The position numbers were made by a program, and so were the translations under genes. The notes under the pieces are model-generated. The model had not been told where the DNA came from and searched no databases. It saw nothing but the letters and a program-made list of their open reading frames with translations. A DNA stretch of 64,000 bases. Origin: Owenia fusiformis. Taxonomy: Eukaryota; Annelida; Polychaeta; Sabellida; Oweniidae. How positions within the stretch are numbered: position 1 is the first letter of the stretch; each line of letters begins with the position of its first letter. Below, one piece after another: positions 44,001 to 53,000 of the stretch. The stretch is taken from the NCBI GenBank assembly GCA_903813345.2, contig CAIIXF020000006.1, forward strand, positions 19,413,936 to 19,477,935, in the 5' to 3' direction.

Positions 44001-47000
44001 ATCAAGGCACTTAAGAAAGCTGTGATATTTGAATGCTGTTATTGATAACTGATTTATGGAGATTTGGATTTGAAGACGTTTGTTACTGTATTAGTTAAGT
44101 TTGTCTTTTGTACTCTTGTACCCTATAAGGGGTGAATTGAGAAATCAATAAATAAAAAAAATTAAATAAATAAAACAACATGATATCCATGGTTTGGCAA
44201 GAAATGATATAATAGGAAAAATTACAGTTGATATCACACAATAATTTTGATGGCACAATGATTTTACTTTCAGGCATTTCTATCTGCATTTGATCTTTTT
44301 AAGGTCAGAAATTACATTTATATAGTTTGTGCAAAATGATGTAGACCGCGTATAGAATGAGTTATATATACCTGATAATAACAAGTGATTCAAATTAGGA
44401 AATTCAATATGAAAATTCTGAACATGCGGATAGGCCTTTAGCCACAAAACGGGAATTCTTAATTTCAGTTATCTAAAAAATCTAGAATCATTAGATTTCT
44501 ATAACAGTCACATATTGTCATTAGGCACCTTGAACTCATAATAACCTCCAAGTACGTCTCAGATATACTCATTTTCTGAGCTCAAAAACATCATTTCGAT
44601 TAATATCTTCTCATCAATTAAATCTGTGAGACTGTGGGATTATTTGCAAAAGAGCTAAAATGTGTAATCATGCATGTGTTGCCTCAAGCAATTCATTGTC
44701 ATATATCACATTCTAAGCCAGTGGGCTTACTTAAGGTAGTTATATACAGGCACAATGTGGCACCATCCTATAGCATAGGAGCAATGATTTGACATATGAT
44801 CAATTGTTCAAATGTTCAATTTTGTGAAATGACACTTTTGAAAAATAAAAATTTTAGTAATCAATTGCTTTCAGAAGATCAATAAATTATGGTAAATTAT
44901 AATATTTCTATTGTATTTTTGATGCACTTTGGTATGTACTGAACAAAATATTAGAAAAACACACTAAACATGAGAAATTACTTTCAAAGAGCAAAAAATG
45001 AATTTGGTGATCTATTATTTTTATTTTTTCTTAATATTATCTTTATTTATCAAATCAAGTATGCAAATATGAAAAATTCTAGTGTTCAGTTTTAGAGATA
45101 TTACACCTGTTTTATTCCATCTTTCACCACACAAGATCAAAATATTTTCTAAATCAAGAGTCAGAGCCTACTTTTTTATTTGATTTTGAAATATAATTAT
45201 GGATGTAATGAACATTTATAATCAAATTATATATACTTTATCTAAGTAATTATATGTAATTCTCTGTGTATAACTACCTTAATAGATGCAATAAATGGAT
45301 ACATAATGCAAAATATAATACAAGAGGATTGCTTTCTCCAGGAGGTGGAAGCCAATTGCTCCAGTGGGACCCTTTTGAGTAGACAGGGTATGATGAGGTT
45401 AAATGCATGATAAGTAAATAAATATGACAATGCTTTTCCAGGAAAAGAAAGACAATAACTTTAAAGACCCTGTGTCAATCAGGAGGGTCTGATGATCGAA
45501 GTCAAAGCAAAATAAATACTGTACAATGGCTATATATAAATTTGCAAATCCCTTTTCTGGGAAACATCACATTCTAGGTTACATGGCCTATTCAAATGAA
45601 AAATGACAACTTACAAGATTGCGAGTAATTGCGTTCTGAAGAGTACAGGACCCTGTGTGTATATCCCATAATCTCAGAGAATTGTCCCTAGAACCCGTAC
45701 AGAGCCTTGTGTTATCTGGAATGATATAATGTGACGCTGAAAATACTACTGTTGTAGTTTAACCATGTTAACATACACTAAACAACATTTCATTTATTCA
45801 ACATTAATAATATCCTTTCTGTAAGTGATTTCAAAAGGATACTAATAGATATTATAGCAAGGACAATTAGGAAATAAGGACTGGCACAGAATGGAACTAG
45901 CAGCCATCTTGAAAATTTCATCTTGAACATTTTGTTGATTAACAGTGGCCATTTTGTAAAGTGGAACACCCCGGGGAGCACCCGGAGTGTTAGTAGAACA
46001 CTTTTCAAAGTCCCAAGACCAACTGACTTAATGTTCAATCAACCTCTATAAGTAGAACAATTTCAGAGGTACTAAAGGTGTTCCACTGAGACAGGTTTTG
46101 CTGTACTTGAAACATTTTTTCTTAAAACTGCAAGCTAAATAATATAGACAGTATAATTATACAATTGTATGCATCCCAGATTTAGCTTGCCTAGTAGTTT
46201 GAAAAATGATATTCATCCAGGGGTGATTTAATTAACAAGTAATATATCTTATTTTACATCTGCATGGTGAAATAAGAGTCAATGGCCTCCCAATAACCTT
46301 TTAACATCATATAATGCAAACTAAAAAAGATTAATTTCTATTAATTTCTGGCTTATGGGCCATGTAAACCAGCATAGAATATGCAAATTAAATAGATACA
46401 TATATGTATACATACATATATCTATGTATTCATGCATATATATATTATATGCCAGCACAGAATATGCAAATTAGATAGATACATACATTATTATATATAT
46501 GAATATCTGAGATATCTATGAATATGCTTTAATTTATGAGATATATGTGTATTGTATACATGTTATATATGTATGTATTTGTATATATCTTCTAAGCTGG
46601 TCCCCAGTCCCCAGTTCCCAGTTTGAGATATCTATATGCTATATATAATATGTATGTATGTTTTTGTATATATCTTCTAAGCTGGTCCCCAGTCCCCAGT
46701 TCCCAGTTTGAGATATCTATATTCTATATGCTATATATAATATGTATGTATGTATCTGTATGTATCTTCTAAGCTGGTCCCCAGTCCCCAGTTCCCAGAT
46801 ATCTATGTTTGTGTATATATGTATTTGTATGTATCTTATAAGTTGGTCCCCAGTCCCCAGTTCCCATTTTGAGATATCTATGTTATATGTATGTATGTAT
46901 CTTCTAAGCTGGTCCCCAGTCCCCAGTTCCCAGTTTGAGATTGAGTATTTGTATTAAACATTGACAGAATATGAAATGAATATAACATCGTAACAAAAAA

Positions 47001-50000: not shown

Positions 50001-53000
50001 GTCAATGATTTAATGAATTAGAGCAACGTTTTTAATTTGAACAGGTCATTCATCAAATGACAACTGAAGATTAACTTAAAATAGAATGTCTATCTATATA
50101 TTTATATGCATGAGAGACATATGTTATAATGTTAGTGAACTAATGATTATGATAATTTCACCTGTTCACATCCAGTTCCTATCATGATTGAAAACTGACT
50201 GGAGTAATTCTCTTCAAATTATTTACTAATACTGGCCACATGAGCACACCAGGTATATATCAGTTACACAAACTTTAGAGCAACGTTTAACATTAAACTT
50301 GTATATTTCACTGAGTTACTCTATATGTGGAAATAAAAGACATTAGCGCAACCAGCAGACCAGGGGGGGGGTTCGCGATCGCCAAATTTTTGCTATTAGC
50401 TAGAAGCTTCAAACAAAATGCATTTTAAAGCTCTCATTTTTTTATTGGTCATCACCCCTACCTCCTGGCTACGCCTATGATAGGGATATAGGTCAAAAAT
50501 GGTAAGCTGCAATGGTCATAGTATGTCTAAAATTATAAGTGATTCCAATGTAGATATTTTATACTTCATATTTCATTATAGAAATTTTAACTTTACTCCA
50601 GACTTGACAGAACTTTAACTTTGAAGAACTCTTTAAAATTGTCTTTGAATTATACATTGAATCAGCCTGAAACCTATCTTCTAGTAGAAAACAGTTAATC
50701 CAGTCAAGACTACAGTAATGAGACAAACCCATAACTTACATAACTTAGATAATCTGTCTCCAGATTGGAAAAGAATTATACAGTTATATGAAGCAAAGCT
50801 GATAAGCTGTTAGTTATCCAAACATATGTGTCTACTTAAGATGGATCATTTTATGTCTTATCTTGATACTGATTTTAAATAGAGAGTCAATTTCAGAAGC
50901 TTTCAGTCTAATGTATTTCAATGTATTATGAATTCTCTACCTTTTCAATATATTGAAGCAAAATTAGAAAAAAAGTAAAACAAAACCCCCCAAAAATAGA
51001 TATAAATCAAGATAAACCTTTTATTTCATCAACAAGATACTTTTTTAAAATCAACCAAAATTTCCTTTGTACAATTACAATATTGAGAGACTTAAACATG
51101 TTGTGTATATGTCGTTTTGTTCAAAACAGGTTTGGAAAGATGTTTCATTTCATTCTGAGCATGTGATACCAGAAGCAAAAGAAGTGTTTGATGTGTTTTC
51201 TAAAACAATAAAGAGAAAAGTATATACATTTTTTCAAATTATATTGTTACCATTCAAAAGATGACCATTAAATTGACAATAGACTATGTAATTTTTAGAA
51301 ATTTTTGATGACTGATTTAAGAGAAAAGTGTGTTCAAAAAGTTCACCATATCAATACCAATCCTTTACAGGTTCTCCTAAATATCCAGGATGTCAACTCT
51401 TCAGTCTATATGGAAAGGTTAAACTTGTGACTAGGATAACAAAAAGGTCAATCTTTCTAATTTTCACATATTTTATTATATATCAGATAGACATTGAAGT
51501 TCTTCCTAAATAAAATCTGGCTGTTCTTGGATTTTAAAGTGTTATGTAAAGATGATAACTTAATGACTATTAGATGACTCTTCCACCTACACCAGTCCAG
51601 TCTATACCATTAAACATGCAATAAGAGAAGTAAATATACAGAGTGGTCCAAAAAAGTGAACCACTGCAACAGGCTATATTTTCCTTAATACTTGCATGAA
51701 TAGACTCATATTATCACACATTGTAGAAAAAGGTCTAACATTTTGGTTGATGCCATAATTTATTCTCTGTCTTAAATTTTGAAGAAATCACATCTAAATG
51801 AGGTCTTATATAGGATTCATCCTCAGTGTATATTGCTATCAACTCATAAAAGAGAATGGATCAAGATGAATCTTGAATGATTAAAATTTACTTTAAAATA
51901 GTTTACATACTTTAACATAGAGATCTCGAAATGGGAACTGGGGACTGGGGACCAGCTTAGAAGATACATACAAATACGTATATACACAAACATAGATATC
52001 TCAAACTGGGAACTGGGGACTGGGGACCTTCTTAAAAGATACATACAGATACATACATACATATATATATAGCATATAGATATCTCAAACTGGGAACTGG
52101 GGACTGGGGACCAGCTTAGAAGATACATACAAATACATACATATTATATATAACAATATAGATATCTCAAACTGGAAATTGGGGACTGGGGACCTTCTTA
52201 AAAGATACATACAAATACATACATATTATATATAGCAATATCTCAAACTGGGAACTGGGGACTGGGGACCAGCTTAGAAGATACATACAAATACATACAT
52301 ATTATATATAACAATATATATATCTCAAACTGGAAATTGGGGACTGGGGACCTTCTTAAAAGATACATACAAATACATACATATTATATATAGCAATATC
52401 TCAAACTGGGAACTGGGGACCAGCTTAGAAGATACATACAGATACATACATACATATTATATATAGCATATAGATATCTCAAACTGGGAACTGGGGACTG
52501 GGGACCTTCTTAAAAGATACATACAAATACATACATATTATAAATAACAATATAGATATCTCAAACTGGGAACTGGGGACTGGGGACCAGCTTAGAAGAT
52601 ATATACAAATACATACATATATAACATGTATACAATACACACATATCTCATAAATTAAAGCATATTCATAGATATCTCAATGTAGGATATTCATGAATTA
52701 TTGTTATTTAATTAACATATTCTCTGCCAACTAATAAATTAATTGTTATGTATCTACTGTAGTTCTATATATGTATATAGTCTATCTTATTAACATATTC
52801 CATGCTTGTATATATATCATACATATATATAAATACATATAATAATGTATGTATCTATCTAATTTGCATATTCTGTGCTGGTTTACATGGCCCATAAGCC
52901 TAATTTCTACTATTAATGTCAACATGTTACACAGTCAATATAAGCACAATCAAGTTATTATAAGGTTCAAGAAAATGTATCTATAGAAGTATGGGATAAA

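What the first reader, a model, noticed from the sequence alone, without database searches (positions are those of the whole stretch)
46350..52900. 6.55-kb transposon whose inverted ends contain mirrored minisatellites
Perfect 8-bp duplication (TAATTTCT) and inverted ends starting GGCTTATGGGCC. Each end carries a tandem array of the same 80-bp unit in opposite orientation (5 units left, 9 right). The unequal counts and the two alternating unit variants on the right suggest the arrays expand independently after insertion. Arrays like this could be multiplied transposase-binding sites. The GGCTTATGGGCC end fits no superfamily I can name.
Basis: partly seen in the sequence, partly recalled or inferred. 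Interest (0 to 1): 0.75.

Follow-up and report, generated by a model that had tools for sequence, protein, structure and literature searches.

The report
Foldback-type DNA transposon without transposase
This is a single, apparently non-coding jumping element with long inverted ends that each contain a short tandem repeat array; it looks like a new member of the long-known 'foldback' type of DNA transposon, with one modest clue that the arrays carry copies of the element's own end motif.

Summary
The element is 46350-52900 (6551 nt), flanked by a perfect 8-bp duplication TAATTTCT, with inverted ends starting GGCTTATGGGCC and mirrored arrays of 66-92-nt units, 5 left and 9 right. No transposase trace was found in the middle; two other repeats are nested there. 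The layout is that of foldback transposons (Tetris, Galileo F, Tm1, Muta1), for which unequal arrays and the binding-site idea are already in print. Two points go further. Both arms share some unit types in the same order (L2~R2, L3~R8, less clearly L4~R9); the right arm alone has a duplicated two-unit block. And 9 of 14 array junctions carry, inverted, the terminal motif ACCAGCWTAGAA, seen elsewhere in the window at <=1 mismatch only at the two ends. 'Fits no superfamily' is too strong: GG ends with 8-9-bp duplications are described for Merlin, long ends with 8-10-bp duplications for Mutator-like elements. The decisive test, other copies in the same genome, could not be run: no genome is held. 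New member of a known kind.

The parts
46342..46349 (.). left target site duplication TAATTTCT
46350..46507 (+). left end: GGCTTATGGGCC terminus plus outer repeats (46369-46396 and 46452-46479)
46508..46637 (+). part of left arm (reaches into the array), 99% complementary to 52550-52679
46564..46941 (+). left tandem array, 5 unit cores
46942..51903 (.). middle domain, no protein family above cut-off in six frames; holds two nested repeats
47548..48225 (.). nested inverted-repeat element with ends TTATGGCCTAGTCACATAGCCCGGCCGATG (exact boundaries uncertain, possible TA duplication)
   Evidence: sequence
48424..49897 (.). nested complex of palindromic repeats, paired stretches 77-100% alike
51913..52620 (-). 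right tandem array, 9 unit cores, alternating junction variants
52550..52679 (-). part of right arm (reaches into the array), partner of 46508-46637
52680..52900 (-). right end: outer repeats (52703-52730, 52781-52808, 52854-52881) and terminus GGCCCATAAGCC
52901..52908 (.). right target site duplication TAATTTCT

Best explanation
A non-autonomous cut-and-paste DNA transposon of foldback architecture. Shown: exact inverted termini, 8-bp duplication, long arms with a terminal domain and a tandem-repeat domain, no protein-family match in the middle. Inferred: a transposase encoded elsewhere in the genome binds the ends, cuts the element out and inserts it with an 8-bp staggered cut. The array units probably began as, or took up, inverted copies of the subterminal motif ACCAGCWTAGAA and multiplied by unequal exchange or slippage; the right arm gained a two-unit block after the arms parted. 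The units may act as extra transposase-binding sites. Most likely superfamily: Mutator-like (about 0.5), then Merlin (about 0.25).
For: Ends and duplication; arms; unit comparison with L2~R2 one event, L3~R8 four, R3~R5 one, R4~R6 one; motif at <=1 mismatch only at the two termini and in 9 of 14 junctions of the 64-kb window; a match of 11 of 12 between left terminus and unit is reached by 8 of 1547 control segments; the 70-nt left end against whole units is reached by 0 and 2 of 3272 controls; no transposase in six frames of 46942-51903; matching architecture in Tetris, Galileo F, Tm1 and Muta1.
Against: One copy only; no other copy or empty site could be looked for, and none lies in the rest of the window. 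Six exact-pattern scans of viral, bacterial and archaeal collections found nothing, as expected of those collections. The motif was chosen after seeing it; the right terminus matches the unit at only 10 of 12. The 40-nt left end against whole units cut at the core, which splits the motif, was not unusual (251 and 1093 of 5724 controls as good). The 70-nt scores lean on AT-rich repeats.
Confidence: 0.85

Rival explanations
1. Same element, superfamily Mutator-like: a foldback mobilised by a Mutator-type transposase.
For: 8-10-bp duplications and ends over 100 bp are given as typical; subterminal tandem repeats in 10 of 12 long-ended Aedes families; most foldbacks are said to belong to Mutator.
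Against: No transposase; no end sequence of a Mutator family was compared here; the Aedes repeats are 9-15 bp.
Confidence: 0.5
2. Same element, superfamily Merlin: mobilised by a Merlin transposase.
For: Terminal GG and 8-9-bp duplications are the features given for Merlin, and internal tandem repeats occur in some families.
Against: Merlin ends are given as 24-462 bp, here the arms reach about 590 and 1000 nt with their arrays; Merlins of one curated bivalve-study library average 1635 bp, but the host here is not known and this element carries nested insertions. No transposase to test.
Confidence: 0.25
3. Not a transposon: an inverted segmental duplication of a minisatellite with a chance 8-bp repeat.
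For: Single copy; mirrored arrays could arise by inverted duplication (inference).
Against: Perfect 12-bp termini exactly abutted by a non-palindromic 8-bp duplication, the only such pair of 2232 examined.
Confidence: 0.04

Closest known systems
Tetris, foldback of Drosophila virilis (PMC4079207; abstract, sections 3 and 10, part 1 of section 16 read)
   Same: Non-autonomous; long ends with an outer flanking domain and a tandem-repeat domain; variable repeat number; 8-9-bp duplications in the three complete copies; units share a stretch with the outer domain (37 bp, about 80%).
   Different: Units about 220 bp; here the shared motif is shorter (12-15 nt) and inverted relative to the end. The sequences themselves were not compared.
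Galileo subfamily F, P superfamily (PMC3573991; passages read)
   Same: Tandem repeats inside the inverted ends, differing in number between the two ends of a copy; repeats proposed as secondary transposase-binding sites.
   Different: 7-bp duplications; units about 210 bp; P-type transposase in the family.
Tm1 (PMC3169594; passages read) and Muta1 (PMC5225508; passages read), Mutator-type foldbacks
   Same: Composite ends with a terminal motif and variable numbers of tandem repeats; 8-10-bp duplications.
   Different: Repeats of 12-15 bp rather than 66-92.
Merlin (PMC8101967; passages read)
   Same: Terminal GG, 8-9-bp duplications, tandem repeats reported inside some families.
   Different: Ends described as 24-462 bp; mirrored arrays at both ends not mentioned in the passages read.
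Cg_HINE Helentrons of Crassostrea gigas (PMC7492417; abstract and outline read)
   Same: Non-autonomous elements carrying satellite-like arrays.
   Different: Arrays are central, not mirrored in inverted ends; Helentron class.

Membership tests
Foldback-type transposon (architecture) | Long inverted ends composed partly of tandem repeats | tested here: met
Foldback-type transposon (architecture) | Target site duplication in the 7-10-bp range of the cases read | tested here: met
   8 bp; range
Foldback-type transposon (architecture) | Several dispersed copies with the same ends | not testable with these tools
   no genome held; no second copy in the 64-kb window
Mutator-like (MULE) | 8-10-bp duplication and ends over 100 bp | tested here: met
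   description
Mutator-like (MULE) | MULE transposase in the element or an autonomous partner | tested here: inconclusive
   none found inside; partner not searchable
Merlin | Terminal 5'-GG and 8-9-bp duplication | tested here: met
   description
Merlin | Inverted ends of 24-462 bp | tested here: inconclusive
   arms about 590 and 1000 nt including arrays; the part outside the first core is about 250 nt left and 312 nt right
Merlin | DDE_Tnp_IS1595-type transposase in the element or a partner | tested here: inconclusive
   none found inside; partner not searchable
P superfamily (Galileo) | P-type (THAP) transposase in the element or a partner | tested here: inconclusive
   none found inside; partner not searchable
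Helentron (HINE) | Central repeat array; no target site duplication (the latter recalled) | tested here: not met
   8-bp duplication and two arrays inside inverted ends

The most novel reading that the evidence does not exclude
The element represents an undescribed transposon lineage with GGCTTATGGGCC ends whose arrays are inverted, amplified copies of its own end-recognition motif, growing under selection for transposase binding and seeding minisatellites in the genome.
Probability: 0.1. Interest if true: 0.5.

Novelty: new member of a known kind. Interest (0 to 1): 0.22.

Why it matters
It adds a foldback-type element, apparently from an animal genome, to those described, and gives a testable detail: array units carrying an inverted copy of the terminal motif, which parallels Tetris and would support arrays as multiplied binding sites. 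It does not change the known picture.

Tried and rejected
Other copies: none in the rest of the window by BLAST; own genome not held; exact-pattern scans of viral contigs (one search was for the nested element's end) and of bacterial and archaeal genomes gave 0 hits each, which says little since the host is a eukaryote. Coding capacity: Pfam on the four open frames of 90 residues or more that overlap the element (part; one match below cut-off, E 0.012, to the array's own translation) and on six frames of 46942-51903 (two matches below cut-off, E 0.13 and 0.32) gave no transposase. No Rfam match at gathering score and no tRNA in the window. A terminal hairpin in GGCTTATGGGCC was considered; folding of the first 70 nt is not unusual (z -1.42, 16 of 200 shuffles as good). 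In the opposite orientation the terminus and the unit do not match better than shuffles (p 0.68 and 0.66). Dating the right-arm expansion against the arm divergence failed (p 0.46). A paper search for 'foldback', 'mollusc', 'inverted repeats' and 'mutator' together found 0 papers; that speaks only for that library and those terms.

Full report
What is there. The element runs from 46350 to 52900, 6551 nt. It begins GGCTTATGGGCC and ends with the exact reverse complement; TAATTTCT stands directly outside each end. Of lengths 5 to 12 only 8 gives equal flanks. An 8-bp match at a fixed place has a chance of about 3.5e-5 here, and of 2232 exact inverted 12-mer pairs 150-12000 nt apart this is the only one with a non-palindromic 8-10-bp flanking repeat; 16 others have self-complementary flanks.

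Arms. BLAST of the element against itself pairs 159-592 with 5891-6330 (element coordinates) at 88% and the outermost 1-142 with 6418-6551 at 81%. Without gaps, 46508-46637 and 52550-52679 are 99% complementary, while the outermost 76 nt are 86%. A 28-nt outer motif, taken from the copy at 46452, occurs at 46369 and 46452 on the left (2 and 0 mismatches) and at 52854, 52781 and 52703 on the right (0, 6 and 9), with one more marginal match at 47036 (9); none lies outside the element at up to 9 mismatches. The left's second copy, not its first, equals the right's first, which suggests that the ends have been partly rebuilt (inference).

Arrays. There are 5 unit cores on the left and 9 on the right; units are 66-92 nt left and 69-85 nt right between cores. 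Compared pairwise by mismatches plus gap events: L2-R2 1, L1-R2 3, L3-R8 4. L4 and R9 share CCCATTT, but over their whole length they are 10 apart, because R9 runs past the end of the arm, and L4 is closer to L2, R2 and R8 (6 each). L5, cut short by the end of the array, has no clear partner (4 to R1, R5 and R8). Read from the outside in, the matches L2-R2, L3-R8 and, less clearly, L4-R9 keep the same order in both arms, so an array with at least two or three of these unit types probably existed before the arms diverged; later copying between the arms is not excluded. R3-R5 and R4-R6 differ by one event each: a two-unit block duplicated in the right arm. The junction variants alternate without exception on the right; TTTTAAGAA does not occur on the left. 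Whether this happened after insertion at this site cannot be told: my hand counts of 1 of 151 against 8 of 378 differences do not differ (Fisher p 0.46).

Shared motif. ACCAGCATAGAA of the left terminus recurs, inverted, as ACCAGCTTAGAA in 4 of 5 left and 5 of 9 right junctions. At up to one mismatch the 64-kb window holds it only at the two ends and in these units; at two mismatches there are two further places outside the element. Taking the first 40 nt of the left end against one unit, 11 of 12 is reached by 8 of 1547 control segments; the right end reaches 10 of 12. A shuffle test of 70 terminal nt gave p 0.0015 for the A unit and 0.005 for the B unit, the latter through AT-rich sequence; in the other orientation p was 0.68 and 0.66. 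Against real window segments, the 70-nt end was reached by 0 and 2 of 3272 controls for units L2 and R6, while the 40-nt end against the same units, cut at the core so that the motif is split, was unremarkable (251 and 1093 of 5724); the 21-nt junction core alone was reached by 0 of 5724. I noticed the motif first and tested it second, so this is suggestive only.

Middle. No protein family reaches its cut-off in six frames of 46942-51903. Two repeats lie inside: an inverted-repeat element at about 47548-48225 and a palindromic complex at 48424-49897 with a 70% relative at 53043-53187 just outside the element. The element as it stands is therefore taken to be non-autonomous.

Context. No genome is held for the window. 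An exon-like stretch at 4954-5316 matches DNA topoisomerase 3-beta-1 over 80 residues, and 53919-54218 holds a WD40 repeat. I take the host to be a eukaryote, probably an animal; I did not identify it.

Comparison. Foldback transposons have long inverted ends built partly of tandem repeats. Tetris has an outer domain, about 220-bp repeats, 8-9-bp duplications in its three complete copies, allelic copies differing in repeat number, and a 37-bp stretch shared by outer domain and repeats. In Galileo F the two ends of one copy differ in repeat number, and such repeats are proposed as secondary binding sites. Tm1 and Muta1 are Mutator-type cases with short repeats. The GG end with 8-bp duplication matches the description of Merlin; long ends with 8-10-bp duplications match Mutator-like elements. 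Without a transposase neither can be confirmed.

Verdict. A real and well-read observation, a new member of a known kind, unplaced as to superfamily, with one modest new clue in the inverted motif.

Noticed in passing
window 48424-49897 and 53043-53187: Palindromic repeat complex with several inverted copies inside the element and a 70% relative in the right flank.
   Followed up: partly
window 47548-48225: GC-rich inverted-repeat element nested in the transposon; a smaller inverted repeat at 34322-34463 has ends that share GTCACAT with it, by eye only; BLAST found no relative of the nested element in the window.
   Followed up: partly
window 36837-37499, 24393-25817, 31609-32348, 28954-29074, 20639-22800: Further inverted-repeat elements with arms of 44 to 92 nt; several ends begin with TA.
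   Followed up: no
window 46369-46396 and 46452-46479, 52854-52881: The outer repeats contain ATGCAAAT, which from recall is the octamer motif of POU factors; not tested.
   Followed up: no
window 58368-58680: Compound tandem array outside the element with consensus unit TTGAATGAAAGAGCAATATA and longer forms.
   Followed up: no
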